From Bugula neritina (Eukaryota; Bryozoa; Gymnolaemata; Cheilostomatida; Bugulidae): 62,000 nt of DNA. The notes under the pieces are model-generated. The model saw only the letters and a program-made list of their open reading frames with translations, ran no database searches and was not told the origin of the DNA. A program made the translations under genes and the position numbers. Location of the stretch: the NCBI GenBank assembly GCA_964035545.1, contig OZ037767.1:175001-237000 (forward strand). Direction: 5' to 3'. Each line of letters starts with the position of its first letter. Position 1 is the stretch's first letter. Of this stretch, positions 11,392 to 50,100 are shown one piece after another.

Positions 11392-14300
11392 CTAATACCG
11401 GACAAAGTCATTTCTGGGCTGAATGTGGATGAGAGTGGAATTAGAAACCCTCTTCTTCTGTCTAAACCGATGTAGACTCCGCACTATGCTGTTCACTCCG
11501 AACTGTATGAACTCGCAGATTGTAAGTAGACTGGCTCCAATACAAACTCCTAGAGTTCCTCCCAGACTCGCTGTTACAATACAATATAATACAATACAAT
11601 GCAGTACAATACACACTTCTAGAGTTCCACCCAGACTCGCTGTTACAATACAATATAATACAATACAATGCAGTACAATACACATTCCTAGAGTTCCACC
11701 CAGACTCGCTGTTACAATACAATATCTCGATGGTAAGGAATAATCAACAAATGATGTCTAACTAGATATCACTAAGACTCTTATTAATTCTCACCAATGA
11801 TGTCAAATACTCCGTAAGCGATCTCTTCTTCTAGGAAGTCATAGCTGAGAGAGTTGAAGTATATCCCGGCTGTCATCATGTTCTTCTCCATGTAACCTTG
11901 ATATGTGTCTGCAACTACAAGAGAGTGTGACTACTCAGTGTGACTACTCAGTGTGACTACTCAGTGTGACTACTCAGTGTGACTACTCAGTGTGACTACT
12001 CAGTGTGACTACTCAGTGTGACTACTCAGTGTGACTGCTCAGTGTGACTGCTCAGTGTGACTGCTTAGTGTGACTACTCAGTGTGACTACTTAGTATGAG
12101 TACTTAGTGTGACTACTCAGTGTGACTACTCAGTATGACTACTCAGTGTGACTACTCAGTATGAGTACTTAGTGTGACTACTTAGTGTGACTACTAAGTG
12201 TGACTACTCAGTGTGACTACTTAGTGTGACTTACTTCCATCTCCGTAGATATCTCGGACGTACATAGGATTGGGGTACTTAGTGATGGCCGCATTGGCCT
12301 TGTAGTTATACTCAGTGCACGTGCTGTTACACTGACACACATCTTCCAGGTATTCATAGAATTCAGTTAGATCTACAACCATAATATGTTGTTACTATGT
12401 AATATAGTAGCGTATTACTATGTAATATAGTAGCGTATTACTACGTAATATAGTAGCGTATTACTACGTAATATAGTAGTGTATTACTATGTAATATATT
12501 AGCATATTACTATGTAATATAGTAGCGTATTACTATGTAATATAGTAGTGTATTACTATGTAATATAGTAGCATATTACTATGTAATATAGTAGCATATT
12601 ACTATGTAATATAGTAGTGTATTACTATGTAATATAGTAGCATATTACTATGTAATATAGTAGCGTATTACTATGTAATATAGTAGCGTATTACTATGTA
12701 ATATAGTAGCGTATTACTATGTAATATATTAGCGTATTACTATGTAATATATCAGTGTATTACTATGTAATATAGTAGCATATTACTATGTAATATAGTA
12801 GCGTATTACTACGTAATATAGTAGTGTATTACTATGTAATATAGTAGCGTATTACTACGTAATATATTAGCGTATTACTATGTAATATAGTAGTGTATTA
12901 CTATGTAATATAGTAGCGTATTACTATGTAATATAGTAGCGTATTACTACGTAATATAGTAGTGTATTACTATGTAATATAGTAGCGTATTACTACGTAA
13001 TATATTAGCGTATTACTATGTAATATAGTAGCGTATTACTATGTAATATAATAGCGTATAACTATGTAATATAGTAGCGTATTACTATGTAATATAGTAG
13101 TGTATTACTATGTAATATAATAGCGTATAACTATGTAATATAGTAGCGTATTACTACGTAATATATTAGTGTATTACTATGTAATATAGTAGCGTATTAC
13201 TACGTAATATAGTAGTGTATTACTACGTAATATATTAGTGTATTACTATGTAATATAGTAGCGTATTACTATGTAATATAGTAGCGTATTACTATGTAAT
13301 ATAGTAGCGTATTACTATGTAATATAGTAGCGTATTACTATGTAATATATTAGTGTATTACTATGTAATATAGTAGCGTATTACTATGTAATATAGTAGC
13401 GTATTACTATGTAATATATTAGTGTATTACTATGTAATATAGTAGTGTATTACTATGTAATATATTAGTGTATTACTATGTAATATAGTAGCGTATTATT
13501 ATGTAATATATTAGTGTATTACTATGTAATATAGTAGTGTATTACTATGTAATATATTAGTGTATTACTATGTAATATAGTAGCGTATTACTATGTAATA
13601 TATTAGTGTATTACTATGTAATATAGTAGCGTATTACTATGTAATATAGTAGCGTATTACTATGTAATATATTAGTGTATTACTATGTAATATAGTAGTG
13701 TATTACTATGTAATATATTAGTGTATTACTATGTAATATAGTAGCGTATTATTATGTAATATATTAGTGTATTACTATGTAATATAGTAGTGTATTACTA
13801 TGTAATATATTAGTGTATTACTATGTAATATAGTAGTGTATTACTACGTAATATAGTAGCGTATTACTACGTACGACTAAAATTTTATGGTCAACCAAGT
13901 AACATATTACAGCACATTATCAAACTTTGAACTTACTTGACTTTCCTAGTATGCAGGACATGAAAGTTTGAGGGTTGCATATGTCGGCTCCCCCAACAGC
14001 TGCAATATTACATTCGATAAACTTAGCCTATGTGTCACTAAAACAATATACTGGCTGCAGTAATAGCCCAATATAGCAGATGTATTCTAGCATACTAAGA
14101 TGTGCGAGTATAGATATAGTATAGACAGAGTATAGACAGAGTATAGACAGTGTATAGACAGAGTATAGACAGTGTATAGACAGAGTATAGACAGAGTGTA
14201 GACAGAGTATAGACAGAGTATAGAGAGAGTATAGAGAGAGTATAGACAGAGTATAGACAGAGTATAGAGAGAGTATAGACAGAGTATAAACAGAGTATAA

Positions 14301-17300
14301 ATAGTGTATAGATATGGTTGATGGCGTTACCAGGCTCAAAGAAGTGACGACAGCCACACTTTTCAATGGAGTAGTTGGCCTGACACTCTCTCACGCAGGC
14401 ATTGTAAGAGTACTCTGGGTAGAAGCTGAGGGGGTTGGGTTTAGTCTCAGTATCAAAACAGTCAGCAGTGTTGTTGTCAGCAGGGGGCGGCTGCCTCTTT
14501 ATCTGTGAGATAAAAGAATGTTATGTACGCGTACATGCAGTGTGTGATCCAAACTATTAGGTGTGATATACAGAGTACTGAGTATAAACTATTAGGTGTG
14601 ATATACAGAGTAATGAGTATAAACTATTAGGTGTGATATACAGAGTACTGAGTATAGACTATTAGGTGTGATATACAGAGTACTGAGTATAAACTATTAG
14701 GTGTGATATACAGAGTACTGAGTATAAACTATTAGGTGTGATATACAGAGTACTGAGTATAGACTATTAGGTGTGATATACAGAGTACTGAGTATAAACT
14801 ATTAGGTGTGATATACAGAGTACTGAGTATAAACTATTAGGTGTGATATACAGAGTACTGAGTATAAACTATTAGGTGTGATATACAGAGTAATGAGTAT
14901 AAACTATTAGGTGTGATATACAGAGTACTGAGTATAAACTATTAGGTGTGATATACAGAGTACTGAGTATAAACTATTGGGTGTGATATACAGAGTACTG
15001 AGTATAAACTATTAGGTGTGATATACAGAGTACTGAGTATAAACTATTAGGTGTGATATACAGAGTACTGAGTATAAACTATTAGGTGTGATATACAGAG
15101 TACTGAGTATAGACTATTAGGTGTGATATACAGAGTACTGAGTATAAACTATTAGGTGTGATATACAGAGTACTGAGTATAGACTATTAGGTGTGATATA
15201 CAGAGTACTGAGTATAAACTATTAGGTGTGATACCTTTCCTTGTTCAAACTTATAGAACACTTTAGAGACCACCAGATGCGCTGATTATAGTAAACTAAT
15301 GAGAGTTGCCCCTCCTTCATATTAAGCATATTTTACCCCTCAGCTCACCTTGAGTAAATCTAAGGCTACTTTAGAGTAGGTTCCAGGAGCTACTCCGATT
15401 ATTGAGTCAGTAACCATAACTCCGACTTCTCCTGGTTTATTAGCAGCCATCTGGTGGTACATACAGAGTAAGTAGTATATTATATATAGCTTGTAGTAAG
15501 TAGTAAGTAGCTAGTAGTAAGTAGCTAGTAGTGAGTAGTAAGTAGTAAGTAGCTAGTAGTAAGTAGCTAGTAGTGAGTAGTAAGTAGCTAGTAGTAAGTA
15601 GCTAGTAGTAAGTAGCTAGTAGTAAGTAGCTAGTAGTAAGTAGCTAGTAGTAAGTAGCTAGTAGTGAGTAGCTAGTAGTAAGTAGCTAGTAGTAAGTAGC
15701 TAGTAGTAAGTAGTAAGTAGCTAGTAGTAAGTAGCTGGTAGTAAGTAACTAGTAGTAAGTAACTAGTAGTAAGTAGTAAGTAGTAAGTAGCTAGTAGTAA
15801 GTAGCTAGTAGTAAGTAGCTAGTAGTAAATAGCTAGTAGTAAGTAGCTAGCAGTAAGTAGCTAGTAGTAAGTAGCTGGTAGTAAGTAGCTAGTAATAAGT
15901 AGTAAGTAGCTAGTAGTAAGTAGCTAGTAGTAAGTAGCTAGTAGTAAGTAGCTAGTAGTAAGTAGCTAGTAGTGAGTAGCTAGTAGTAAGTAGCTAGTAG
16001 TAAGTAGCTAGTAGTAAGTAGTAAGTAGCTAGTAGTAAGTAGCTGGTAGTAAGTAACTAGTAGTAAGTAACTAGTAGTAAGTAGTAAGTAGTAAGTAGCT
16101 AGTAGTAAGTAGCTAGTAGTAAGTAGCTAGTAGTAAATAGCTAGTAGTAAGTAGCTAGCAGTAAGTAGCTAGTAGTAAGTAGCTGGTAGTAAGTAGCTAG
16201 TAATAAGTAGTAAGTAGCTAGTAGTAAGTAGCTAGTAGTAAGTAGTAAGTAGTAAGTATCAAGAAGTAAGTAACAAAGACTTACAGAGAAGCCGCTGGAC
16301 AATGACTCAGGGCCAACATAGTAGGAGTCAACTTCTGCATCCAGAACCAGTAACAGACCTCCAAGTAGGCCTGGGTTCCTCACTTTGTGTCTCCCGTCCT
16401 CATTGAAGGAGTAGCACAACCCTGTGTGTAATATAATATACACAGTATACTGAGTATAATATACAGAGTACTGAGTATAATATACAGAGTACAGAGTATA
16501 ATATACAGAGTACTGAGTATAATATACAGAGTACTGAGTATAATATACAGAGTACTGAGTATAATATACAGAGTACTGAGTATAATATACAGAGTATATA
16601 GTATAATATACAGAGTACTGAGTATAATATACAGAGTACTGAGTATAATATACAGCGTATACTGAGTATAATATACAGAGTATATAGTATAATATACAGC
16701 GTATACTGAGTATAGTATACAGAGTATATAGTATAATATACAGAGTATACAGAGTATAATATACAGAGTACTGAGTATAATATACAGAGTATACAGAGTA
16801 TAATATACAGCGTATACTGAGTATTATAATATACAGCATATGCAGAGTATAATATACAGGGTATACAGAGTATAATATACAGCGTATACAGAGTATAATA
16901 TACAGCATATACAGAGTATAATATACACATATTAACCTACCAATATCTGTTAGCACTGGTTTGAACTCTGCCGTGATATTCAAGTCTTCAGAGCGAAAGG
17001 TTGCGTACTGAATGGTAGTAGTGACAGGGGGAGATAACTTGTACATAGCGTCTTGTAGTGTGTTGCTGTCCAAGTTAGCTAGGAGATGGTACTCTGGTGA
17101 GCTCCAGTTCCTTCAGTAAAGTTTATATATGTGTATATATACATGTATATATGTGTATATATACATGTATATATATACACATATATACATGTATATGTGT
17201 GTATATATACATGTATATATGTGTATATATACATGTATATATACACATATATACATGTATATGTGTGTATATATACATGTATATATATACACATATATAC

Positions 17301-18458
17301 ATGTATATATATACACATATATACATGTATATATTCAACTTAATAAATAAACAAAGAGGAGTAAAGAGAGACTCACACATGAGTTACAGACTGCCCGTAA
17401 GCGAACAAGTTTTTCAGCAAGATGTCGAGTCCGGTGACGTTGTAGGAGTAGACGGCCGACTCGACGTAGTGTCGGTTGAAGGCGTTGTTACTGCACACCA
17501 GGATGTTGGGAAATTGGAGCTCCTTGACTCGCACGTTTCTAAATTTGGTTGTCGTCTCTCTTTTGATGAAGGTGTTGAAAAACTCCCAGGAGGCGTATCC
17601 GGCGTAGAGCAGCATAATGAGTATAGTCACCACCCAGAGCACCCTGCAACACGTGTCAAATATACTGTTACCACCCAAAGCACCCTGCGACACGTGTCAA
17701 ATATACTGTTACCACCCAGAGCACCCTGCAACACGTGTCAAATATACTGTTACCACCCAGAGCACCCTGCAACACGTGTCAAATATACTGTTACCACCCA
17801 GAGCACCCTGCAACACTTGTCAAATATACTGTTACCACCCAGAGCACCCTGCGACACGTGTCAGGTGTACTGTCACCACCCAGAGCACCCTCCGGCATGG
17901 GTCAAATATACTGTCATATACTTACTTAGTCACAGGGTATAAGTTACTCTACTTACTTAGTCACAGGGTGTAAGTTAATCTACTTACTTAGTCACAAGGT
18001 GTAAGTTACTATACTTACTTAGTCACAGGGTGTAAGTTACTCTACTTACTTAGTCACAGGGTGTAAGATAATCTACTTACTTAGTCACAAGGTGTAAGTT
18101 ACTATACTTACTTAGTCACAGGGTGCAAGTTAATCTACTTACTTAGTCACAAGGTGTAAGTTACTATACTTACTTAGTCAGAGGGTGTAAGTTACTCTAC
18201 TTACTTAGTCACAGGGTGTAAGTTAATCTACTTACTTAGTCACAAGGTGTAAGTTACTATACTTACTTAGTCACAGGGTGTAAGTTACTATACTTACTTA
18301 GTCACAGGGTGTATTTTATTAAGGTGAACATAACGGATGCCGTGCATAGACACTTCCTGTGTAAACTCCGACCATGATGGTTCCTTTTCACTATCTTCTT
18401 CTGTCGGTTGTTCCTCCAAGACTTTCTTCTCATCGCATTTACAGTTTGAACATTCCAT
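11392..18458 (-). CDS. DEG/ENaC sodium channel subunit, gene B
   Basis: Degenerin/ENaC/ASIC family channel subunit, plasma membrane, 10 exons: 18298-18458, 17377-17643, 16941-17110, 16285-16421, 15349-15450, 14331-14502, 13937-13999, 12235-12372, 11795-11914, 11392-11570. They join without frame conflict into 502 aa. The cytoplasmic N-terminus has the family His-Gly gating motif ([12 protein letters not shown]). TM1 is [19 protein letters not shown]. The extracellular loop has [12 protein letters not shown] after TM1 and cysteine-rich blocks ([28 protein letters not shown]). The TM2 exon carries the GAS filter and a basic tail. Exon 2 equals exons 2+3 of gene D fused (267 nt in both), so one intron differs between paralogues. 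Length is normal for the family. The ligand (peptide, proton or other) cannot be told. Its last exon is the most divergent of the five genes. Confidence 0.9.
11571..11710 (-). repeat. Duplicated 3' splice junction, last intron of gene B
   Basis: Two extra copies, 69 bp apart, of the true acceptor GTAACAG plus the first ~20 bases of the terminal exon (CGAGTCTGGGTGGAACTCTA) precede the real exon start at 11570. Each copy is a plausible alternative acceptor. Confidence 0.85.
11926..12230. repeat. 13-bp array, intron 8 of gene B
   Basis: About 23 copies of GTGACTACTCAGT and variants fill the intron to within a few bases of the donor GTAAGTCACAC, which resembles one unit. Confidence 0.9.
12385..13870. 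repeat. 1.5-kb 23-bp array, intron 7 of gene B
   Basis: About 64 copies of a 23-bp unit (ATGTAATATAGTAGCGTATT core) with recurring GCG/GTG/GCA and TAG/TTAG variants in patterns that imply multi-unit block duplication. Confidence 0.95.
14100..14310. repeat. 11-bp array, intron 6 of gene B
   Basis: Copies of ACAGAGTATAG with single-base variants fill most of the intron next to exon 6. Confidence 0.9.
14540..15232. repeat. 33-bp array, intron 5 of gene B
   Basis: About 21 copies of a 33-bp unit (GTGATATACAGAGTACTGAG and TATAAACTATTAG), highly homogeneous. Confidence 0.95.
15470..16260. repeat. 14-bp array with higher-order duplication, intron 4 of gene B
   Basis: Copies of AGTAAGTAGCTAGT and shorter forms. 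A block of about 310 bp, recognisable by its rare variants (AGCTGGTAGTAAGTAACTAG, GTAAATAGC), occurs twice in tandem around 15.65-15.90 and 15.96-16.21 kb. Confidence 0.9.
16430..16930. repeat. Tandem array, intron 3 of gene B
   Basis: Copies of AGTATAATATACAGAGTACT and relatives fill the intron. Confidence 0.9.
17120..17335. repeat. ATATACATGTATATGTGT microsatellite, intron 2 of gene B
   Basis: Alternating purine-pyrimidine, largely self-complementary repeat. It is open in many frames on both strands but is not coding. Confidence 0.9.
17644..17905 (-). repeat. Acceptor-junction array, 3' half of gene B intron 1
   Basis: Seven copies of a 41-bp unit. On the minus strand each contains GTGTTGCAG followed by GGTGCTCTGGGTGGT, which is the authentic 3' splice site plus the start of exon 2. 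The real junction is at 17643/17644. Confidence 0.9.
17915..18297 (-). repeat. Donor-junction array, 5' half of gene B intron 1
   Basis: About 12 copies of a 31-bp unit which on the minus strand contains ACACCCTGTGACTAA followed by GTAAGT: the last 15 bases of exon 1 plus the 5' splice site. The real donor is at 18297. The same sequence is the exon 1/intron 1 boundary of gene D at 42.34 kb. Confidence 0.92.
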
Positions 18459-20717: not shown

Positions 20718-25518
<4,801 letters not shown>

Positions 25519-35700: not shown

Positions 35701-37381
35701 TTCGACATTATTATAGAAATGGCAGGTCCTGGTCTGCTTCTTGATCCGACAGGAAGCTTGTTTCACCTGATTACTCGTCTCCTTGGAAACCACAGGATGT
35801 ACACACAGCTGATCTCTGGATGCTATGATAGCACTACGAAATCTAGACAGAAAAATACATCATTACCTGTGATATGACACAGTACTTACCTGTGATATGA
35901 TACAGTACTTACCTGTGATATGATACAGTATTTACCTGTGATATGATACAGTATTTACCTGTGATATGATACTGTACTTACCTGTGATATGATACAGTAT
36001 TTACTTGTGATATGATACAGTATTTACCTGTGATATGATACAGTACTTACCTGTGATATGATACAGTATTTACCTGTGATATGAAACAGTACTTACCTGT
36101 GATATGATACAATACTTACCTGTGATATGATACAGTATTTACCTGTGATATGATACAGTACTTACCTATACTGTAATACAGTACCCAGTACCTACTACTT
36201 ACCTGCAGTAAGCTGTACGCTTGAGCTCCTTCATAACCTGAGACAGCTGGCTGTGGGTTCTGGAGGCGTAGATCACCCGAACTCTGGAGTTGCCAAACCC
36301 TGTAAGTAGGAGAGCCATTCGTGTCATCAGTTAGAGATCAGTTTGTAAAACATACCCTACCTAGTGAACTGACAAAGCTCCGCCTACCCACTCCAGTGAA
36401 CTGACAAAGCTCCGCCTACCCATTCCAGTGAACTGACTAAGCTCCGCCTACTCACTCCAGTGAACTGACTAAGCTCCGCCTACCCACTCCAGTGAACTGA
36501 CTAAGCTCCGCCTACCCACTCCAGTGAACTGACTAAGCTCCGCCTACCCACTCCAGAAATTTACAAAGCTCCGCCTACCCACTCCAGTGAACTGACAAAG
36601 CTCCGCCTACTCACTCCAGTGAACTGACTAAGCTCCGCCTACCCACTCCAGTGAACTGACTAAGCTCCGCCTACCCACTCCAGTGAACTGACTAAGCTCC
36701 GCCTACCCACTCCAGAAATTTACAAAGCTCCGCCTACCCACCCCAGTGAACTGACTAAGCTCCGCCTACTCACTCCAGTGAACTGACTAAGCTCCGCCTA
36801 CCCACTCCAGTGAACTGACTAAGCTCCACCTACCTGAAGGAAGTTGACAAAGCTCCACCTACCTGGAGGAAGTTGACAAAGCTCCACCTACCTGGAGGAA
36901 GTTGACAAAGCACCACCTACCTGGAGGGAGTTGACAAAGCACCACCTACCTGAAGGAAGTTGACAAAGCTCCACCTACCTGGAGGAAGTTGATCAGAAAC
37001 ATCTCCTCTCTTCAGTTGCTCCTCCAACAGCTGTGACTGCTGACTTGAAGAGAGACATTGAGCTCTGAGCATCTGCTGCTCCACCTGGTACCTCTCCAGC
37101 CAGGCTAGACTGGCACAGAGTAGACAGAGAGTCTTACCTGTACCTGTAGGGGACTCTAGCAGAGCGTTCTTATTCTACAAGTATATTATACTGAGTACTC
37201 AGTCTAACAGGAAACATCTACAACTCACTAATAAAGCTGTCTGTCAACTCATATTCTAAACATTCACAGATACGCTCACCTCTTGCAGAGCCTGCACAAC
37301 TTTAGACATAAAATCCCTTTGAGATTCATAAGGAGTGAAAGGGAAGTCAACGGCAACACCTCCAACGTCTATGAGCGGCAT
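26711..37381 (-). CDS. RTEL1: RTEL1, iron-sulfur DNA helicase (22 exons)
   Basis: Regulator of telomere elongation helicase, an XPD-type 5'-3' DNA helicase acting in the nucleus on T-loops, D-loops and G-quadruplexes. Exons: 37280-37381, 36979-37174, 36203-36299, 35700-35842, 35492-35585, 34836-34923, 34217-34282, 33911-34112, 33050-33226, 32808-32944, 32443-32521, 31921-32053, 31593-31833, 31043-31198, 30732-30875, 29831-29946, 29379-29736, 28306-28503, 27507-27639, 27246-27415, 27020-27158, 26711-26922; they join to 1126 aa. Visible motifs: N-terminus [13 protein letters not shown]; Walker A SPTGTGKT (42-49); 4Fe-4S cysteines at 145, 163, 172 and about 212; FDEAHNL (256-262); [23 protein letters not shown] (703-710). 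Two harmonin-like helical segments follow ([30 protein letters not shown]). A C-terminal PIP box or RING finger was not found, so the 3' end may be incomplete or truly shorter. Exon 19 uses a weak acceptor. Confidence 0.92.
27660..28300. repeat. 21-bp array, RTEL1 intron 18
   Basis: About 30 copies of TGTAGATATACACTGTTATAC fill the intron between the threonine/proline-rich exon and the first harmonin-like segment. Confidence 0.95.
28385..28485 (-). repeat. RTEL1: Coding 15-bp repeat in RTEL1 exon 18
   Basis: The exon encodes [20 protein letters not shown] and on through further STPL units, from a 15-bp DNA repeat (CTCAGTGGTGTAGAG on the plus strand). It is a low-complexity linker between the helicase core and the harmonin-like region. 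Confidence 0.85.
28515..29370. repeat. 17-bp array with ~400-bp higher-order repeat, RTEL1 intron 17
   Basis: Units of ATGTATCAGTATATCGT with variants. A marker cluster (GTGTCAGTATATGTATCAGT followed by a CACTAT variant) recurs about 405 bp apart, so a whole block was duplicated. Confidence 0.9.
29955..30728. repeat. 14-bp and ACAG-type arrays, RTEL1 intron 15
   Basis: About 34 copies of GTGTATCTTATAGT are followed by GACAGACAGACGTACTATAAA units up to the donor of exon 15. Confidence 0.9.
31205..31590. repeat. 19-bp and 15-bp arrays, RTEL1 intron 13
   Basis: GTAACTCAGTCACTGTATA (about 12 copies), then GACTCAGAGTGATAC units, then ACAGACTC units adjoining the donor of exon 13. Confidence 0.9.
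32060..32340. repeat. 24-bp array, RTEL1 intron 11
   Basis: Copies of GGAGTAGTAACTATACTAGG plus TATA with many single-base variants. Confidence 0.9.
32522..32770 (-). repeat. Acceptor-junction array, RTEL1 intron 10
   Basis: About 15 copies of a 16-bp unit, on the minus strand GTATATGTCTATGTAG. The unit start matches the start of exon 11 (GTATATGTCTATG) and its end supplies the TAG acceptor, so each unit is a copy of the 3' splice junction. Confidence 0.88.
33230..33905. repeat. ATAACTTATACTCAGACTAT array, RTEL1 intron 8
   Basis: About 25 copies of a 22-32 bp unit fill the intron. Confidence 0.9.
34325..34790. repeat. 16-bp array, RTEL1 intron 6
   Basis: About 28 copies of CTCTACACTAGACTGT with C/T variants. 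Confidence 0.9.
35010..35475. repeat. 31-bp array, RTEL1 intron 5
   Basis: About 15 copies of a unit containing ATATATCTGATGATAGACAT. It is open in all minus-strand frames for over 100 codons and is not coding. Confidence 0.9.
35870..36202 (-). repeat. Donor-like array, RTEL1 intron 3
   Basis: About 12 copies of a 23-bp unit which on the minus strand contains CACAGGTAAGTACTG, a full-consensus 5' splice site (CAG|GTAAGT) like the real exon 3 donor (TGCAG then GTAAGTAGT). Each unit starts GT and ends CAG. Confidence 0.85.
36360..36978 (-). repeat. Donor-junction arrays, RTEL1 intron 2
   Basis: About five 29-bp units next to exon 2 read, on the minus strand, CAACTTCCTCCAG then GTAGGTG: the exon end plus donor. 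They pass into about 15 units of 32 bp (GTAGGCGGAGCTTAGTCAGT core) that keep a GTAGG start. Confidence 0.9.
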
Positions 37382-38685: not shown

Positions 38686-41249
38686 ATGGCTCTGATTCGC
38701 AATTCAAAGTTGATTTGTTACTGGACAAATGGTCAAGCTTTGGTCTCAAAATATAATTTTGCCGTTAAAAGAGTGTTAGATTGTAGCAGCTTAAGTATTT
38801 CACCTTATCATACACACCAATCAAGCACTATCAGCTTGAGAGAAAATGTCGACACACACACGAAAAAAAGTAAGAAATCGTCATCATGATCATGGATCAT
38901 CTTCATGATCATCTTGATTATCAACTTCTAGTAAATCAATTTGACGATGACAATCACAATGCCCAATGGCAAGCTTAAAACTTTTGGTAGTGCTTAGTAT
39001 CAGTAATAGTGCTAGTAGTGCAACTGTAAGTAGTGGTAAATAGTTACTAGTCATTATCATTATCATTATGATCATGGTTACTCATATTGTTAATCATTCA
39101 ATTGATCAACTAGTACTATTACTGATTTACTCTATTAGTATTAGTATTACTATAACTATAAGTGTTGGTATTTTGATTTTATTAACTAAGAGTAAAACTT
39201 ACTCTTAGACTAAGAATAATACTAATACTAATAGTAATAGTAATACTAATACTAATAGTAATAGTAATTTCCAATTACTATTACTATTAGTATTACTATG
39301 AGTATGAGTGTAAGTACTATTATTAGCATTAGTGATTAGTCTATTACTCTTAGTATTGCTCAATCAGTTTGCTAATTTTATTTCAGTTTAAAGGTGTACT
39401 ACTATTGCTACTACTGCTGCTACTAGTACTGCACCTACTTGATCTTGATCTACTACTGCTAAATTTTTAGTATACTATTTATATTAATAATTACATTTAA
39501 TAAATCTAAGAAAAGTCATAAGTGTGAATTACTTCAATATCAATAAGAATTGATTAAGCTTCAAGTTTAGGTTTGACATGTATCATATAGTTATATGATG
39601 AGGATGGAATATTAATACCAATAGCTACAAATTGGTATGAGTATGACTATCAATATCAGTATCATTGTGACTATAGCTTATGAGAAATTAAATTAAATAA
39701 CTATTCATGTTAGCTATTACTCCTTTTAGTTATTTGTTATTAGAATATCTGTTTAATTGAAAGAATAGTTCTATAATTGCTCAGTAGCTATTTCGAAGTA
39801 TGAGTTTTGGTCAGCACAAAACAGAGCCATGCCTCACGTCATCATCATGACTAATGCTTCTGTTTAGGTAAAAGAATTTGATATTACAACGAATAGAATG
39901 GTATAAGTTAGATATAATTCTAAAGTAGTTTTAGGTTGCTGTGGAAATTGATCTGTCAATCTAATTGGATTATCAGATTGAGTTTTAAAATTCTTAAGCA
40001 ATGCCCATTGTATTTTTCTGGTATCTAGTGACAGAGTTGGTATTGCATGTTACTTAAATTTTCTTTATTCTTGTAGTTGTGAGAACAACAAATGCAGATG
40101 GTCTTTTAACTGTAAGTTTTCTCTGTCCTTATTTTATTTGGATAAAATGATGAATCAAATAGTTATTATCCTGACCCAGTTTAAGTAGTATCTGTGAGTT
40201 TTACTACTTCTTAGTTTTCAATATTTTGCAGTAGCTGATGTTTGTACTAAGAAGTTAGTTGAGTTTATAGCAACAGGAGTTATGTTCTTGTTAAGCTACT
40301 CTTTGAACCAAGTGTTGAGCCTTTTCCTGTTTTCCTATTCTAATGACTCGTTTGTCAACTTATAACTTGTAGATTGAAGGCAAGGATGTGCCCAACACAC
40401 AGAAGGGTTTAGTTGTAGATAATGAGAAGGGAGCGTGCCCACTCTGTGCCTTAGACCTTGACATCAAGTATACAGTAAGTGAGCAACATAACATACATCT
40501 ATCAGTTTATATATCTCTACACCTGCACTATTCAGTGTATAGCATATTCTCATAATCTCTCCGTTTCTCTTCTTAGGATATCCTCATAATCTCTCTGTTT
40601 CTCTTCTTAGGACATCCTCATAATCTCTCCGTTTCTCTTCTTAGGATGTCCTCATAATCTCTCAGTTTCTCTTCTTAGGATATCCTCATAATCTCTCCGT
40701 TTCTCTTCTTAGGATATCCTCATAATCTCTCAGTTTCTCTTCTTAGGATATCTTCATAATCTCTCAGTTTCTCTTCTTAGGATATCCTCATAATCTCTCA
40801 GTTTCTCTTCTTAGCATATCCTCATAATCTCTCAGTTTCTCTTCTTAGGATATCCTCATAATCTCTCAGTTTCTCTTCTTAGGATATCCTCATAATCTCT
40901 CAGTTTCTCTTCTTAGGATATCCTCATAATCTCTCAGTTCCTCAGAAAAGATGGCCGTCTGTTGCCCCGCCGTGACACAGGACTCTGTGCTAAGCAGCAG
41001 AATAGAATGAGTAGACTGGTTCACATGGCACACAATTCAGGTACTTGTAAAGTGCTAGATAAATGTGTTCGGAGTTATTCCTCCCTTCTGTATATCTCCT
41101 GTCTCCTAACACAGTTTATATTTCCTGCTCCAGGTTTGCTGTCGAGCTTGCGTCCCCCTATGCGTGGCGGCCGACAGCGCCGGCCTGACAAAGAAAGCAA
41201 CTTCTCGTTCAGAGGACTGAATAGATACTTTACTGAGAACTACTCGTAG
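38686..41249 (+). CDS. MRPS18A: Mitochondrial ribosomal protein S18A-like (mL66)
   Basis: bS18-family protein of the mitochondrial large ribosomal subunit. Five exons, 38686-38869, 40077-40111, 40373-40474, 40917-41040 and 41134-41249, join in phase to 186 aa. The N-terminal ~60 residues are basic and hydroxyl-rich, fitting a mitochondrial presequence. The core shows VRTTNADGLLTIEGKDVPN, KGACPLCALDLDIKYTD, ILIISQFLRKDGRLLPRRDT, TGLCAKQQNRMSRLVHMAHN and AGLLSSLRPP-type S18 motifs, ending LNRYFTENYS and TAG. Order and spacing agree with animal MRPS18A. Intron 1 (1.2 kb) is AT-rich and includes an ACTAATAGTAATAGT microsatellite at 39180-39300. Confidence 0.85.
40500..40916 (+). repeat. Acceptor-junction array, MRPS18A intron 3
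   Basis: Eleven copies (34 bp each) of TTTCTCTTCTTAG then GATATCCTCATAATCTC: the 3' splice site plus the first ~19 bases of exon 4. Only the last copy (exon from 40917) continues into the coding exon. Confidence 0.92.
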
Positions 41250-42215
41250 CAATTCACTGCCAGTTCTGTTTCATAATACTGTACATCATGTTCACCTGTT
41301 CACCTGTTTACCTGTTCACCTGTTTACCTGTAAATTATTGTAAGCTCAAATAAAATCATTTGTTGCAGTGAAATCAGCTGCTAGTTTGAATGGAATCTGC
41401 TGCTTGTTGTGATAATAACAGTAAATCTTCACCTCATAATTCTGCAATACACTTCAGTTTAAGGCAGTCTGTGTTACCCTCCCCCCTCCCCAATGTCAAA
41501 GTTTAGCACCCCTGCAAACATGAAACATGAATCTACACTGAAGAAAAGGACAACTTACTCTTTGAGTTATATTTCTTTGCATTAAACTAAATAATATTTT
41601 CAGCATCGGTCTTGCACTCTGTAGGAGCAGACAACTTCTATTTTATTGAACTTTGCTACATGTAGTGTAACTTGTCAGATTTTATGTTGACTATTTCCTC
41701 TGAAATTAGATGTTCCAAATCAATTATTCTGCATTCATAATTGAGTCCCACATGGTAACCAATACCCTCTAATCAATAAGCTCAGGAAACTTACTTTACT
41801 TCAATAATAATACATAGCAGGTAATCTGGTGCTCCAGGGTCTATATACTGATGAGTATCTAGAGAAGTTCTCTATTCAGTTGACCCATGAGCAGACCAAC
41901 TCTCTAGCTAGCAGCTCTCTATTTTCTCTTCACTGTGCTTCTTGGTAAGTCTGTACACGTATTCTTTACCTGCAGCTACATGTATCTACCATTACGTTTT
42001 AGAAATAACAAATTATAAGTTTCTAAAGTCAGGTTGTTCTAGCAATAAGGAAGTACCCTGCTTAGGTTAAAAGTTAGACAAGTTCGGAATGCTACATCAT
42101 TGTTTACTGTATATTGTTTTATGCAAGACTTAGTGGAGAAAATTCTGTGGTTTCATAGTCACCTGTTTAGCTTGTTTATTTTGTTAGTAGCTTCCATCAA
42201 CTGAACATTGTCGTA
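41250..42215. other. Spacer between MRPS18A and gene D
   Basis: Holds a poly(A) signal AATAAA at 41349-41354, 100 bp after the MRPS18A stop, and a short CACCTGTTTACCTGTT repeat at 41288-41335. The rest should hold the gene D promoter; no other gene is seen. Confidence 0.6.
41349..41354 (+). terminator. Poly(A) signal of MRPS18A
   Basis: Canonical AATAAA 100 bp downstream of the TAG stop, followed by a T/G-rich stretch. Confidence 0.6.
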
Positions 42216-45200
42216 ATGGCTCAAAGTGACAATGGGCCCCGAATTGCGGCAACAGAAGAAAATAAGAAGTCAACATGGGCGGAATTTACACAGGAAGTTA
42301 CAATGCATGGTATCCGTTACGTACATCTAAGTAACTTACACCCTGTGACTAAGTAAGTATATCGCAATGCATGGTATACATGCATGCTAAGTAGGTGAAT
42401 ATTAGACATGTACATCTGACCAGCCTACATGCGAGTTGCTATGTAGCCGCATCACTCTCCAATGACATCACAGCGAGTGTGTGATGACATCACAGCGGGT
42501 GTGTGATGTCATCACAGCGAGTGTGTGATGACATCACAGGGAGTGTGTGATGACATCACAGCGAGTGTGTGATGACATCACAGCGGGTGTGTGATGACAT
42601 CACAGCGGGTGTGTGATGACATCACAGCGAGTGTGTGATGACATCACAGCGAGTGTGTGATGACATTACGGAGATCTCACAGTTATGTTGAACACTGTTG
42701 TAGAATTATTTGGCTGGCAGCAATTCTCGGAATGGTCTCCTACGCCGTTTTTGCATCCTGGGACGTGATTGATGCTTATAGTAGAATGACAACATTCGTG
42801 AAGTATAAGAATATCAAAGTTACGGAGCTGCAGGTCGTATTGAAACTCATTTCATGAGAGTATTTCTGTGTATTGTGACTCAGTCTCCACTCTGGTCATG
42901 TAAGTTATGTTAGTAAGTTATGTTATGTGTTTCAGTTACCCACCGTGCTTCTCTGTAACAACAATGCCTTCTCCAGGACATCTGTGAGAGATGCTATAGT
43001 AAAGCACAAGTTCACTGGTTTAGACGTCTATCTGAAGAACCTGTTTAGTCAGGGACAGTCAGTTACCTTAGTGTAAGTCACCTCAGTGTAAGTCACCTCA
43101 GTGTAAGTCACCTCAGTGTAAGTCACCTCAGTGTGAGTCACCTCAGTGTGAGTCACCTCAGTGTGAGTCACCTCAGTGTAAGTCACCTCAGTGTGAGTCA
43201 CCTCAGTGTGAGTCACCTCAGTGTGAGTCACCTCAGTGTGAGTCACCTCAGTGTAAGTCACCTCAGTGTAAGTCACCTCAGTGTAAGTCACCTCAGGGTA
43301 AGTCACCTCAGTGTAAGTCACCTCAGTGTGAGTCACCTCAGTGTGAGTCACCTCAGTGTGAGTCACCTCAGTGTGAGTCACCTCAGTGTGAGTCACCTCA
43401 GTGTAAGTCACCTCAGTGTGAGTCACCTCAGTGTAAGTCACCTCAGTGTGAGTCACCTCAGTGTGAGTCACCTCAGTGTGAGTCACCTCAGTGTGAGTCA
43501 CCTCAGTGTAAGTCATAGCTGATTCTGTATCTGCACATACCAACTCTGTATCAGCAGATGACCCATTATCTCCTCTCCACAGGAACTGGAGTGACCCAAA
43601 GTACCACAAGCTAAACTCTTTGTCCAGTCAGCAACTGGAACAGCTGATGTTTGACCTTTCACCTCCCGATATTTTCCTCTATGCCTCGTTTAAGTTTCAG
43701 CCAGTTTACGACTATCAGGCGACGAAGTATTTCACTAGAGTTATGACAGACATTGGTGAGACTTCTTTGCTACAGTGTATATCATATACTGTATTACAGT
43801 GTATATTATATACTGTATTACAGTGTATATTATATACTGTATTACATTGTATATTATACTGTATTACAGTGTATATTATACTGTATTACATTGTATATTA
43901 TATACTGTATTACAGTGTATATTATATACTGTATTACAGTGTATATTATACTGTATTACAGTGTATACTATACTGTATTACAGTGTATATTATACTGTAT
44001 TACAGTATATATTATACATGATGTACTTAGTACTACTGATTGTTAGGCGTCTGTCACCAGTTCAATGCAGACGGTAAGTATACGGCTCATTCTACCGGCA
44101 AACACGACCAGCTGGACTTGATTCTCACAGCCGGTGTGGACGCCTACTATGTCGGCCCCAACGCTATGTCAGATGGTTTCACGGTGGGTTCACAGTCTAA
44201 TACGTATCTATAGATAGTCATATACAAGTATATATTATATATAATACGTATCTATAGATAGTCATATACTAGTATATATTATATATAATACGTATCTATA
44301 GATAGTCATATACAAATATATATTATATATAATACGTATCTATAGATAGTCATATACAAGTATATATTATATATAATACTTATCTATAGATAGTCATATA
44401 CAAGTATATATTATATATAATACGTATCTATAGATAGCCATATACAAACCTGGAGAGGTGCCAGTTATAGATAAAGATGCTACCATAGGAGTCACTCCGG
44501 GAACAAGTACCAGGATATCCATGAGTTTGCAGCAGGTAACCTATATACCTACTATATACTTACTATATAATTACTATATACTTACTATATACTTACTACT
44601 TACTCTACTTACTACTTATTGAGTACATTAACCAGTTAGTTACACTAGTCTAAGTCTCAGTTTTGTCTCCCCAGAATCGAGGGACCACAGTTCTGGACGG
44701 CAGAAGGAAAGTCAAAAGATGCTTTGATATCTGACCAGTCATAACTTCTGTACTATTTGTTGATACTGCCCTTTGACTGGCTGTTGTAGATACAAAGGCA
44801 GCCGCCCCCTGCTGACAACAACACTGCTGACTGTTTTGATACTGAGACTAAACCCAACCCCCTCAGCTTCTACCCAGAGTACTCTTACAATGCCTGCGTG
44901 AGAGAGTGTCAGGCCAACTACTCCATTGAGAAGTGTGGCTGTCGTCACATATTTCATCCAGGTATTGCATCATATTTCATCCAGGTATTACATCATATTT
45001 CATCCAGGTATTACATCATATTTCATCTAGGTATTGCATCATATTTCATCTAGGTATTGCATCATATTTCATCCAGATATTGCATCATATTTCATCTAGG
45101 TATTGCATCATATTTCATCCAGGTATTACATCATATTTCATCCAGGTATTACATCATATTTCATCCAGGTATTACATCATATTTCATCCAGGTATTACAT

Positions 45201-46467
45201 CATATTTCATCCAGGTATTACATCATATTTCATCCAGGTATTACATCATAGCCATATGTCTGCCACTGTAGGTTATGTTTGTAGCTGTAGGAGGTGCAGA
45301 GATCTGTGATGCGCAGACACTGATGTCTTGCATCGTCTATTCCCCAGGTACGTGTGCATATAGTCGTCTATTCCCCAGGTACGTGTGCATATAGTCGTCT
45401 ATTCCCCAGGTACGTGTGCATATAGTCGTCTATTCCCCAGGTACGTGTGCATATAGTCGTCTATTCCCCAGGTACGTGTGCATATAGTAGGTTAGACCTA
45501 ATAATTACGAAATAATGGTAAGTAATATACTAAATAGTCCTAATGTATTTAGTCTTTCATTATATGACTATCAATATTCAGTAATATAATATCATTACAA
45601 TTGTATATATTATATATCATAATCATATCTCCTATGATAGATGCAGACGGAGCTCATCAATACCTCCACGACGTCTGCAATTGTAAGGAAACTTGTACTG
45701 AAACTTCCTACAACGTGCAGACAACTTCTTTCAATTTTCCTAATCGTCTGTACGCAGAGGATTTCTATGGAGATAGAAATGGTACCCCTTCTATATTCTA
45801 TAATATACTTACACGTTACTCTGTCTATATTCTATATTATGCTTATACGTTACTCTGTCTATATTCTATAATATGCTTATATGTTACACTGTCTATATTC
45901 TATAATATGCTTATACGTTATACTGTCTATATTCTATAATATGCTTATACGTTACACTGTCTATATTCTATAATATGCTTATACGTTGCGTCGTCTATAT
46001 TCTACTAAATTTTCATACATTTAAGTGTTTGTCTTATTCTAATATACTTTGGGTTGCAGTGACTTACGAATGGATAAAATCCAATATTCTACGAGTTGAA
46101 ATTAGTTACAAGTCACTCAGCATTGACTTCCATAAGGAACACTTTACCTACACTTGGAGAGACGTGATTGGTGGGTTGCTAGGCTATGATATGGCTATAA
46201 TATTCATCTCATACTATCTTCTTGTATACAGGTAATATCATGCAGGTAAACGTTCACTGTACTCTGCACCTAGTATCTTGTGTGTTGATAGGAAACCTGG
46301 GAGGAACTTTGGGTCTGTGTATTGGAGCCAGTCTACTGACAATCTGTGAGTTTATACAGTTTGGAGTATTCAGTCTCATCAGATGTATCAACAGGAAGAG
46401 AGAACAGGAGAGTAGAAAGAATGTAATACACGTACAGGTGGAACCTACCAAGGCTAGAGTCGGATAA
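42216..46467 (+). CDS. DEG/ENaC sodium channel subunit, gene D (intact)
   Basis: Complete degenerin/ENaC/ASIC-type subunit. Eleven exons: 42216-42352, 42704-42833, 42936-43072, 43583-43755, 44047-44183, 44434-44535, 44790-44961, 45285-45347, 45641-45781, 46060-46170, 46292-46467. They total 1479 nt, or 492 aa, with no frame break. The N-terminus MAQSDNGPRI leads to the His-Gly gating motif at 31-32 (EVTMHGIRYV). TM1 is about 47-67 (IIWLAAILGMVSYAVFASW). The extracellular domain has [45 protein letters not shown] and CNCKETCTETSY. The TM2 exon has GAS at 446-448, then a basic tail. It is the best-preserved member of the cluster and has an extra intron (exons 2/3) that B and C lack. It is convergent with gene E. 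Confidence 0.93.
42440..42670. repeat. 22-bp array, intron 1 of gene D
   Basis: About ten copies of GTGATGACATCACAGCGAGT plus GT, each with the palindrome TGATGACATCA (one copy TGATGTCATCA). Confidence 0.9.
43073..43520 (+). repeat. Donor-junction array, intron 3 of gene D
   Basis: About 30 copies of the 15-bp unit GTAAGTCACCTCAGT or GTGAGTCACCTCAGT, starting exactly at the exon 3 donor. Every unit supplies a strong 5' splice site and a CAG. Confidence 0.9.
43770..44030. repeat. Array of CAGTGTATATTATATACTGT, intron 4 of gene D
   Basis: Copies of a 19-24 bp unit with two length forms fill the intron. Confidence 0.9.
44190..44433 (+). repeat. Acceptor-junction array, intron 5 of gene D
   Basis: Five 44-bp copies that contain CTATAG then ATAGTCATATACAA, matching the real acceptor and start of exon 6 (CTATAG then ATAGCCATATACAA). 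Confidence 0.85.
44962..45250 (+). repeat. Donor-junction array, intron 7 of gene D
   Basis: About 12 copies of a 23-bp unit, GTATTGCATCAT then ATTTCATCCAG. Each repeats the last 11-13 bases of exon 7 (ATATTTCATCCAG) and the donor; each unit begins GT and ends AG. Confidence 0.93.
45348..45490 (+). repeat. Donor-junction array, intron 8 of gene D
   Basis: Four to five copies of a 31-bp unit starting GTACGTGTGCATATAG and ending TCGTCTATTCCCCAG. The latter is the end of exon 8, so each unit is a GT-AG bounded copy of the junction. Confidence 0.93.
45785..46000. repeat. Array of TATATTCTATAATATGCTTA, intron 9 of gene D
   Basis: About seven copies of a 29-bp unit. Confidence 0.9.
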
Positions 46468-47144
46468 CAACTTATACTCAATCAACAGATTCATGCAGTG
46501 ACAGTTTTAAATCACCATGACCTATTAGTAGATACAGGAGCATTAAGTGTATTTACTAAATTCAAAACTGTATAATGTATTGTGATATTATCTATTTACA
46601 TTGTAACAATACAATGTTTATTAACACTCTTTTCTAGCTATTCCATCAACATGTTCAGGATTATCCTAGAGTTAGACGACTCTGAGTATGACAGAACAGT
46701 GTGCAGTATTGGTACTGCTTTCAATAGCAATGTGCTTGAGTTTTATTATACCTACTTATGAATATACTATTGCTATATTTGTTATTCTGTATTATATTTA
46801 TTCTGTATTATATCTATTCCGTATTATATCTATTCCGTATTATATTACCAAGCAGATATACAAGAACAATATACATAATGGTATACATTAGATATTAATA
46901 ATACACTCTGAAGAGTTAAACAATTCATACAAATACTTACAACACTCCACTTTAACATACTTGTTAATCAATGCTGAATATAAATATGATAAACAATATT
47001 GGTTTGATGTCCAAAACTAGAGAGGCAGCATATTACACACACAATATGCAAATTTGGCAGCCCAGATATTGATCTGCTGTCCATTATCAGCTAACCAAAT
47101 ATTGGTGCTGGTACTTAGTCAGTGATGTATTGCCAATACGTCTG
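46468..47144. other. Convergent spacer between genes D and E
   Basis: AT-rich, with a short TATTCTGTATTATATCTATT repeat near 46790-46850; no gene seen. Confidence 0.6.
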
Positions 47145-50100
47145 CTAGTATTTCCTGTCAGGTTCCACCTGTACGTGTATTACATTCTTTCTACTCTCCT
47201 GTTCTCTCTTCCTGTTGAAACATCTGATGAGACTGAATACTTCAAACTGTATAAACTCACAGATTGTCAGTAGACTGGCTCCAATACACAGACCCAGAGT
47301 TCCTCCAAAATTAGCTGCCAATATACATAATACCACAGGCAATATACATAATACCACAGGCAATATACATAATACCACAGGCAATATACATAATACCACA
47401 GGCAATATACATAATACCACAGGCAATATACATAATACCACAGGCAATATACATAATACCACAGGCAATATACATAATACCACAGGCAATATACATAATA
47501 CCACAGGCAATATACATAATACCACAGGCAATATATATATAATATCACAGGCAATATATATATAATACCACAGGCAATATATATATAATATCACAGGCAA
47601 TGATTTGCAAACACCTGTACCTTCATTAATGCCTTTAAGATTCTCATCTCTCTACATCATTAAATTAATTCCTAACAAAATACTGTAAATATACTAATAT
47701 TATAGCACAAGACTTTGCACTAGCTTTAGCTATACCTTAGTTATGCAACAAATAGTATAGTATCATGTTACAGAAGGCTTTATAACAGGCACACACTAGA
47801 ATGAAGTGACAAATGAAACTCTACTATACATAAGTTTGCAAACTGACCAATCAAGTTAGCTGAGACAGAATAATTCTTAGAGACTAACCAATAGCATCGC
47901 TCCATGTGTATGGCAAGTATTCTTCAAGTAAGTTGTATGACATGGATTTGAAGTTGATAGTCAGTTGAATGAGGTTCTTCTTTAAGTCTTCCATAGTTGC
48001 TAAACACGAGAACACAACTTACAATAATATTATATAATATAGTATTCAGTGTATAATTATATTACAGTGTATATAATGTATATAGTGTATATATTATAGT
48101 GTATATAGTGTATATATTATAGTCATATAAACAAAACTCACTCTCACTATAGTTGAATGCTCGTCTGAAGAATTGTTCATTAGGAAATTTGAAGGTAGAC
48201 ACTTCTGTGGAGTAATATTCTTCGTCACAAGTATTTCTACATCTGCATGACTTCTTTAGAAACTCAATCTTCTCTGCGATGTCTTGAAAATACACATCAT
48301 CAGACTATGTGTCAGACTAGGTGTCAGACTAGGTATCAGACTATGTGTCAGGCTATGTATCAGACTATGTATCAGACTAGGTATCAGACTATGTATCAGA
48401 CTAGGTATCAGACTATGTACCAGACTAGATATCAGACTATGTGTCAGACTATGTATCAGACTATGCGTCATACTAGGTATCAGACTATGCGTCAGACTAT
48501 GTACCATACTAGGTATCAGACTATGTGTCAGGCTATGTATCAGACTAGGTATCATACTAGGTATCAGACTATGTATCAGACTAGGTATCATACTATGTGT
48601 CAGGCTAAACAAACCTCTCACCGACACTCTCAATACTTAAGTATAAAATACTTGACTCACCGCTAAATATCGTATCATGAGTTGAAGTGATCAGCTTATC
48701 CGGCTTACATATCTTGGCTCCATCAACAACTGTAAAATATTATTTTCATATGTTTATTTCTAATTGAATTCTTAACATGCTTTTAGAAAGATTGGTTAAA
48801 AGGTCATTTTTATCCACACTTGCATATTTTTATAAAATAATTAATTTGATTAAACACTTTCTAAATGTCAGTAAACAATTATTAGTTGAGTTTCTAACAA
48901 ATGATTTTAATATACACATACGAGGGTCATAAAAGTTTCTGCACCCAAACTTCTCAACGCTGTAGTTAGTAGAACATTCCCGATAACAGGCATTGTACGA
49001 GTAGTTAGGATAGAAGCTGAGGGGGTTGGACTCCATCTTAGTATCAAAACAGTCAGCAGTGTTGTCGTCAGCAGGGGGCGGCTGCCTCTTTATCTGTTAA
49101 CAAACGATATTTATTCAATTATTTTTCCCTATTCTGTTTTACCTGATATCTACCTTACCTGTTTTCCGTGATGTTCGAGAGTCATCATACCCTGTGCTGT
49201 TTAAGAGTTATCATACCTTGTGCTGTTCTAGAGTTATCATACCCTGTGCTGTTCAAGAGTTATCATACCCTGTGCTGTTCAAGAGTTATCATACCCTGTG
49301 CAGTTCAAGAGTTATCATACCTTGTGCAATTCGAGAGCTATGTTGACAAGAGTCCCGGGAGTAACGCCTACTATTCCATCGGCCATGATGTTTGGTATTT
49401 CTCCGGGCCTGTATATGGCAACCTAACAAGAAGCACTCAACTTTTAACTCAGTTATTCAGTTACACTATTAGCTACAAGTTTAGTCTGCCGAAACACTGA
49501 ACTGATAGAATATACCATTATAATTAGCTTGATTCACTGAGTAAAGTAGAGAGAAGGTAAATTATAGAGAAGGTAAAGTAGAGAGAAGGTAAAGTATAGA
49601 GAAGGTAAAGTAGAGAGAAGGTAAAGTAGAGAGAAGGTAAAGTATAGAGAAGGTAAAGTAGAGAGAAGGTAAAGTAGAGAGAAGGTAAAGTATTGTGATA
49701 GTTTTGTGGATTGTGAATGAAACTAGTGCTTTTACATGCTTGTATGAGAAACAAGGCGAGAAATAAGGTAGAAGGTAGATAATCTTTATTGTAGTATAGT
49801 CCGAGTGAATCAATGGTCTTTATCCAGCGAGCTCCAGTAGTAGACTGAACTATACTGGAACTCGCTGGCTTTTATATACATGCAGGACAAAGACATTCCT
49901 TTGTTTGCCGAGATCGGAGGCCCGAAATACCGAATATCGGCACTTTGGGAATCCGAAATGCCGAATCCGGCATTTCGGTACTTCGGTATTCCGATATGCC
50001 GAGAATCGGCATATTGGTGTTTCGGAGGACCGAAGTACCGATCTCGGCAACAAAGGACACACACACACAACATAATTTTACCACACACACCCCCCATCGG

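What the first reader, a model, noticed from the sequence alone, without database searches (positions are those of the whole stretch)
11392..49422. Minisatellites seeded by splice junctions across unrelated genes
In at least ten introns of five genes (B, C, D and E channels, RTEL1, MRPS18A) the intron-filling repeat unit is a copy of the local exon/intron junction: the last 11-15 exon bases plus the 5' splice site, or the 3' splice site plus the first 10-20 exon bases. In several arrays the unit boundary coincides with the splice site, so each unit starts GT and ends AG. This suggests a general process in this genome in which tandem amplification of AG|GT-containing junctions lengthens (or created) introns. 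It also floods the pre-mRNA with near-identical competing splice sites. Tandem duplication spanning AGGT is a known hypothesis for intron gain; repeated use at this scale in one locus is what looks new.
Basis: partly seen in the sequence, partly recalled or inferred. Interest (0 to 1): 0.92.

Follow-up and report, generated by a model that had tools for sequence, protein, structure and literature searches.

The report
Splice-junction minisatellites in bryozoan introns
Near one chromosome end of a bryozoan, most introns of the genes examined are swollen by short tandem repeats, and in about a dozen cases the repeated unit includes the gene's own splice junction, apparently because repeats start at random places in very short introns rather than being seeded by the junction.

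Summary
In gene models for four ENaC/ASIC-type channels, RTEL1 and MRPS18A, 46 of 56 introns carry tandem arrays. Twelve of 55 arrays, in 11 introns of all six genes, run at least 5 bases into the flanking exon (7 at donors, 5 at acceptors). Exon-to-intron similarity far exceeds shuffled pairs.

The proposed seeding is not supported. If the founding duplication fell at random in a compact intron (median 93 bp once extra copies are removed), 17.1 arrays would reach 5 exon bases and 10.0 would reach 12; observed 12 and 10. Start positions fit a uniform distribution (KS p=0.45). Only 3 of 12 junction units contain AGGT. Channel intron positions recur in array-poor paralogues, so arrays lengthened old introns.

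It is not shown to be genome-wide. The genome matches Bugula neritina; the window lies 175-237 kb from a telomere, and repeat coverage has a median of 0.45 within 0.6 Mb of contig ends and 0.03 at 1 Mb or more.

The closest known kind is the amphioxus 'mirage'. Occurrence in Bryozoa, density and about 106 near-identical decoy splice sites look new; the kind is not. Which copies are spliced is untested: no RNA was available.

The parts
43061..43515 (+). E channel intron 3: 15-bp array, 30.3 copies; 12 bases lie in the end of exon 3 (donor junction; 10 of 12 identical by eye)
44198..44447 (+). E channel intron 5: 44-bp array, 5.7 copies; runs 14 bases into the next exon (acceptor junction)
44948..45250 (+). 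E channel intron 7: 23-bp array, 13.2 copies, units ...CCAG|GTATTA...; 14 exon bases (donor); 11 donor copies with at most 1 mismatch in the intron, none exact
45333..45488 (+). E channel intron 8: 31-bp array, 5.0 copies, 100% matches; 15 exon bases (donor), each unit CCCCAG|GTACGT
17919..18313 (-). B channel intron 1, donor array: 31 bp, 12.7 copies; 16 exon bases; 12 exact donor 9-mers inside the intron
17629..17914 (-). B channel intron 1, acceptor array: 41 bp, 7.0 copies; 36 exon bases; the same intron is built from both of its junctions
11538..11725 (-). B channel intron 9, acceptor array: 69 bp, 2.7 copies; 33 exon bases; both inner acceptors are in frame and open
21636..22088 (-). C channel intron 7: 37-bp array; 7 exon bases (weak donor case)
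61553..61918 (-). D channel intron 1: 23-bp array; 9 exon bases (weak acceptor case; splice sites of this intron uncertain)
49168..49341 (-). D channel intron 6: 26-bp array, 6.7 copies; 21 exon bases (donor, 17 of 21 identical by the score)
36816..36992 (-). RTEL1 intron 2: 29-bp array, 6.1 copies, CCTCCAG|GTAGGTGG; 14 exon bases (donor); next to a related 32-bp array at 36363-36834
40540..40943 (+). MRPS18A intron 1: 34-bp array, 11.9 copies, TTCTTAG|GATATCC...; 27 exon bases (acceptor)
42216..46464 (+). E channel gene model, 11 exons, 502 aa without stop; PF00858 family; 40% identical to a Watersipora subatra ASIC-1-like protein
11419..18395 (-). B channel gene model, 10 exons (start not resolved)
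20739..25452 (-). C channel gene model, 10 exons (start not resolved)
47154..61998 (-). D channel gene model, 11 exons (start not resolved); intron 5 holds a Gypsy-like LTR element
29619..37381 (-). RTEL1 gene model (helicase part, 17 exons, 756 aa without stop)
40373..41234 (+). MRPS18A gene model (3 exons, partial; name from a recalled human sequence)

Best explanation
These are minisatellites of the 'mirage' type produced by non-selective tandem duplication in a repeat-prone subtelomeric zone. A segment of about 10-70 bp is duplicated at a random place (inferred: replication slippage or repair) and then grows by unequal exchange (inferred). Coding exons cannot tolerate this, but the introns underneath are only about 90 bp long, so a random 20-40 bp segment that touches the intron often also takes in an exon edge. 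Such a duplication is invisible in the mRNA as long as the outermost, exon-proximal splice site is used. Junction-derived units are therefore a by-product of short introns plus a high duplication rate, without a preference for AG|GT. Shown: the arrays, the junction overlaps, their agreement with random placement, recurrence of the channel intron positions, and the decline of repeats away from contig ends. Inferred: the duplication mechanism and use of the outermost sites.
For: Random-placement expectation vs observation over 55 arrays: 17.1 vs 12 (>=5 exon bases), 14.0 vs 11 (>=8), 12.0 vs 10 (>=10), 10.0 vs 10 (>=12). Founding starts in 39 single-array introns fit uniform, KS p=0.45; the expectation at >=8 runs from 18.1 to 9.7 when the assumed ancestral intron length is scaled by 0.7 to 1.6. 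Donor and acceptor sides are both hit (7 and 5). AGGT in 7 of 55 units vs ACCT in 6 of 55 and a shuffled mean of 4.0 (maximum 12 in 500 shuffles). Repeat coverage against distance to contig end over 38 stretches: Spearman -0.69, p=1.8e-6; without the five window stretches -0.59, p=3e-4. Chromosome 3 starts with (CCCCAAA)n and ends with TTTGGGG-type repeats. Alignment of E with a Watersipora protein is ungapped at the junction-array positions 248, 340 and 361, with a one-residue gap next to 145.
Against: No RNA was available, so splice sites are inferred and several were set by hand. Ancestral intron length is estimated by removing extra copies, and TRF edges are approximate. One count leans towards the sense strand of donors: GGTA is in 11 of 55 units, its complement TACC in 5. 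Outside the window the less reliable full intron set has slightly more junction arrays than expected (7 vs 3.6 at >=8; P=0.056), although the 54 introns at conserved positions show none (expected 1.65). The subtelomere trend rests mostly on stretches chosen for ENaC genes (27 of 38; 6 samples on C3 were chosen by distance, 5 are the window); telomere repeats were seen at both ends of chromosome 3 and at the right end of chromosome 1 only.
Confidence: 0.77

Rival explanations
1. AG|GT junctions actively seed tandem amplification: splice junctions are hot spots for duplication.
For: Ten of 55 arrays have >=12 exon bases, E7, E8 and RTEL1-2 units are CCAG|GT repeats, and GGTA is commoner in units than TACC (11 vs 5 of 55).
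Against: No excess over random placement, uniform starts, 9 of 12 junction units lack AGGT, and acceptor junctions are hit nearly as often as donors (5 vs 7).
Confidence: 0.08
2. The arrays created the introns by the Rogers/AGGT tandem-duplication route of intron gain.
For: The literature treats this route as real elsewhere (PMC3443670, passages seen), and some units are GT...AG.
Against: ENaC junction-array positions also have introns in paralogues, mostly on chromosome 2, that carry few arrays (54 introns at exactly conserved positions, 9 with arrays). The presence/absence case (intron after E residue 99, also in D, absent in B and C) is present in C2d, and at the matching position of the C query (by my count) in C2e, C2f and C2h, so loss in B and C is simpler. 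RTEL1-2 and MRPS18A-1 were not tested for age.
Confidence: 0.04
3. The duplicated sites are used: alternative donors or acceptors in the arrays make variant channel proteins.
For: B intron 9 units are 69 bp, in frame and open, so inner acceptors would add 23 or 46 residues at the start of the last exon.
Against: Ten of the 12 junction units are not multiples of 3, so two of every three inner copies shift the frame there, and in E3 the inner donors read into TAA. [quoted passage not shown]
Confidence: 0.06
4. Gene models are wrong and the repeats lie inside ordinary introns or exons elsewhere.
For: No RNA; some models had to be corrected by hand (RTEL1 introns 2 and 10, C introns 1 and 7, spurious tiny exons). 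Watersipora lacks about ten residues next to E intron 1.
Against: All six models translate without stops, channel intron positions recur across paralogues, and E aligns with Watersipora over most of its length.
Confidence: 0.05

Closest known systems
'Mirage' minisatellites of amphioxus (Adh3, globin and other genes)
   Same: Minisatellite-like tandem copies spanning an exon-intron boundary; both 5' and 3' boundaries affected; many but not all units carry AG/GT signals; Adh3 units of 10-72 bp cover the range here (15-69 bp) (PMC3087553, passages).
   Different: Another phylum (Bryozoa); 46 of 56 introns carry arrays and both junctions of a single intron can be amplified; here the frequency is tested against random placement and tied to a subtelomeric zone.
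Intron gain by tandem genomic duplication of AGGT (Rogers model)
   Same: Tandem duplication of a segment with AGGT makes splice-site copies on either side (PMC3443670, passages).
   Different: Here old introns grow; no new intron was found.
Minisatellites in the first intron of earthworm metallothionein genes
   Same: Tandem minisatellite monomers filling part of an intron (PMC12783039, passages).
   Different: The passages seen do not describe units that include the splice junction.
Subtelomeric minisatellite clustering (e.g. human; recalled)
   Same: Minisatellites concentrated near chromosome ends.
   Different: Here they fill the introns of coding genes to the exon edge.

Membership tests
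Mirage (exon-intron boundary minisatellite) | Tandem unit spans an exon-intron boundary | tested here: met
   12 of 55 arrays, 7-36 exon bases; 8 of 112 junctions vs 8 of 6160 shuffled pairs at score >=10
Mirage (exon-intron boundary minisatellite) | Both 5' and 3' boundaries affected | tested here: met
   7 donor, 5 acceptor arrays
Mirage (exon-intron boundary minisatellite) | Many units retain splice signals | tested here: met
   69 donor-like and 37 acceptor-like copies with at most 1 mismatch (sums)
Mirage (exon-intron boundary minisatellite) | Normal splicing not disturbed | not testable with these tools
   no RNA
Mirage (exon-intron boundary minisatellite) | Length polymorphism or somatic instability | not testable with these tools
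   one haplotype only
Intron gain by tandem AGGT duplication | Intron absent in relatives without the duplication | tested here: not met
   ENaC positions occupied by introns in paralogues (E3 position within one residue); RTEL1 and MRPS18A not tested
Intron gain by tandem AGGT duplication | Duplicated segment contains AGGT used at both ends | tested here: not met
   AGGT in 3 of 12 junction units; use at both ends could not be tested without RNA

The most novel reading that the evidence does not exclude
In bryozoan subtelomeres the duplication rate is so high, and the spliceosome so strictly exon-proximal (exon definition), that duplicating a splice site is effectively neutral: junction duplications survive at about the rate expected without selection. 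Each chromosome end would then be a natural library of genes with 2 to 29 near-identical competing splice sites per junction, and in-frame cases such as B intron 9 could occasionally be used to lengthen a channel.
Probability: 0.25. Interest if true: 0.72.

Novelty: new member of a known kind. Interest (0 to 1): 0.5.

Why it matters
How the splicing machinery picks one of several near-identical sites is usually studied with engineered constructs (recalled). Here one short region offers about a dozen natural cases at both donors and acceptors. It also gives a caution: junction-like repeat units look like evidence for splice-site-driven intron evolution, yet a simple random-placement model predicts them whenever introns are short and duplication is frequent.

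Tried and rejected
Genome-wide AGGT pattern search: the pattern was too specific, 0 hits. Telomere search with TTAGGG x5: 0 hits; the motif TTTGGGG turned up by reading the contig ends. The ENaC locus at C9 10.81 Mb gave no usable model. One search gave 14 gene models outside the window (138 introns); the low-scoring ones (C1a, C3a, C3b, C6a) contain doubtful exons, so introns off the conserved positions are kept only in the 'all' set, not in the 54. The extra models were looked at but enter no count. Considered and rejected: a special GT...AG unit rule (AGGT in 3 of 12 junction units); AGGT enrichment in units (7 of 55 vs 6 of 55 ACCT); array units as transposed introners (by inspection the units differ from intron to intron; no dedicated test). 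Non-ENaC interior genes as controls were planned but not obtained.

Literature: searches of the open PMC library for precedent; I saw the listings (1 of 1, 20 of 65, 8 of 8, 20 of 28, 3 of 3 and 7 of 7 papers) and passages of five papers (PMC3087553, PMC3443670, PMC11480708, PMC13326412, PMC12783039). Only amphioxus mirages came up as a direct precedent. The original Adh3 paper (Canestro et al. 2002) was not read; it is cited through PMC3087553. For the telomere motif, passages of PMC9498494 and PMC6410037 were seen.
Full report
What the window is. The window is G000:C3:175001-237000 of a genome of 215,847,546 bases in 295 contigs. The contig lengths seen (C1 35.64, C2 33.58, C3 32.42, C4 24.80, C5 17.72, C6 16.05, C8 13.35 and C9 10.88 Mb; C7 not seen) match the published table for the bryozoan Bugula neritina, assembly tzBugNeri2.1 (PMC11480708, passages). 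The total and scaffold number differ slightly (216.00 Mb in 320 scaffolds there). The six best channel homologues are from the bryozoan Watersipora subatra. It is not amphioxus: RTEL1 is 44% identical to Branchiostoma RTEL1.

Gene models. Several junctions were corrected by hand after inspection. MRPS18A, RTEL1 and the N-termini of B, C and D are partial. Alignment of E with a Watersipora protein (40% identity) shows no insert at junction-array positions 248, 340 and 361, a one-residue gap next to 145, and about ten residues missing in Watersipora next to intron 1.

The observation. Of 56 introns, 46 carry arrays (TRF score >=50, period >=8, at least 1.9 copies), 55 arrays in all; median intron length is 322 bp but 93 bp after removing extra copies. 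Twelve arrays reach at least 5 bases into an exon. The clearest are E intron 8 (TCGTCTATTCCCCAG|GTACGTG, five identical units), E intron 7 (CATATTTCATCCAG|GTATT), MRPS18A intron 1 (TTCTTAG|GATATCCTCATAATCTCTCAG) and B intron 1, where one intron has a donor-derived array and a separate acceptor-derived array. Exon ends matched their own intron far better than other exon ends did: scores of at least 10 in 8 of 112 junctions versus 8 of 6160 shuffled pairs, some of the latter probably being paralogous exons. Four of the twelve (E3, C7, D1, D6) score below that cut-off.

Seeding or chance? If a p-bp segment is duplicated at a random place that touches the intron, the chance that it includes at least K bases of a given exon is (p-K)/(L0+p-1), where L0 is the intron length without extra copies. 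Summed over 55 arrays and both sides this gives 17.1, 14.0, 12.0 and 10.0 for K = 5, 8, 10 and 12; observed 12, 11, 10 and 10. The founding starts in 39 single-array introns are compatible with uniform (KS p=0.45), and scaling L0 by 0.7 to 1.6 moves the K=8 expectation from 18.1 to 9.7. AGGT occurs in 7 of 55 units, its complement ACCT in 6, shuffled mean 4.0; GGTA is less even, 11 against 5 for TACC. Only 3 of 12 junction units contain AGGT. So the junctions need no special role. The slight deficit at K=5 (P=0.07) may reflect detection limits or weak selection against decoys.

Lengthening, not creation. Intron positions of the channel genes recur in paralogues elsewhere. Among 138 modelled introns outside the window (14 models), 54 lie at exactly conserved positions, and 9 of these have arrays, none overlapping a junction (expected 1.65 at K=8). 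The position of E intron 3 recurs only within one residue. In the less reliable full set 7 of 138 introns have junction-overlapping arrays (expected 3.6 at K=8, P=0.056), including two donor cases on C6 about 0.52 Mb from the contig end. One intron (after E residue 99) is present in E and D and absent in B and C; it also occurs in C2d, and at the matching position in C2e, C2f and C2h, which points to loss in B and C. RTEL1 and MRPS18A introns were not dated.

Location. C3 begins with (CCCCAAA)n and ends with TTTGGGG-type repeats. The same motif has 6539 forward and 6687 reverse exact four-unit matches in the genome; of the 100 places listed, 98 lie at the right end of C1 and 2 inside it. Coverage by repeats of period at least 8 has a median of 0.45 in 15 stretches within 0.6 Mb of a contig end (0.44 in the 10 that are not the window) and 0.03 in 23 stretches at 1 Mb or more; exceptions are 0.05 at 0.06 Mb on C3 and 0.32 at 1.54 Mb on C2 (medians taken from that list). 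The 38 stretches leave out the two C3 end samples, the last 12 kb of the window and loci contained in larger stretches. Most were chosen because they hold ENaC genes, so this is a trend, not a random survey.

Consequences for splicing. The 11 introns hold 69 donor-like and 37 acceptor-like 9-mers within one mismatch of the true site, 2 to 29 per junction, so site strength alone is unlikely to single out the right copy. Ten of 12 units are not multiples of three, so two of every three inner copies would shift the frame there. Exclusive use of the exon-proximal copy is therefore inferred, most simply by exon definition. B intron 9 is an exception in which both inner acceptors stay in frame and open.

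Relation to known systems. Minisatellite-like copies of exon-intron boundaries were named 'mirages' in amphioxus; [quoted passage not shown] The present arrays meet the sequence features of that kind; splicing and instability could not be tested. My searches of the open library (listings, partly capped) showed no junction-derived arrays outside amphioxus, which does not prove there are none; an earthworm paper describes intronic minisatellites without, in the passages seen, a junction origin.

Noticed in passing
G000:C3:1-1500 (L051), C3 right end (L058), C1:35629184 onward: The chromosome-end repeat is TTTGGGG, a 7-mer, with 0 exact TTAGGG x5 hits. I know of no animal with this motif (recalled). 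Of 290 papers holding the letters and 'telomer', 20 listings were seen and one more; passages of two reviews mention it only inside the ciliate TTTTGGGG.
   Followed up: partly
49423-58687: A Gypsy-like LTR element (about 50.0-57.6 kb, GC 0.53-0.62; called by eye from its open frames) sits in D intron 5; the same 16-bp minisatellite flanks it on both sides (49541-49692 and 57690-58674), so it appears to have inserted into an array.
   Followed up: no
11538-11725: B intron 9: the 69-bp acceptor-derived repeats are in frame and open and would add 23 or 46 residues at the start of the last exon if inner acceptors were used.
   Followed up: partly
29619-37381: RTEL1, named for regulating telomere length, itself lies in the repeat-rich subtelomere; possibly coincidence.
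   Followed up: no
1-366 and 47154-47601: A channel last exon with a 21-bp array (unit CCTGTGGTATTATGTATATTG or a rotation) occurs twice, at the left window edge and in gene D, suggesting a recent duplication.
   Followed up: no
about 22476-22680: A run of unknown bases (X in translation) inside a GA-rich repeat in C intron 6: gap or withheld stretch.
   Followed up: no
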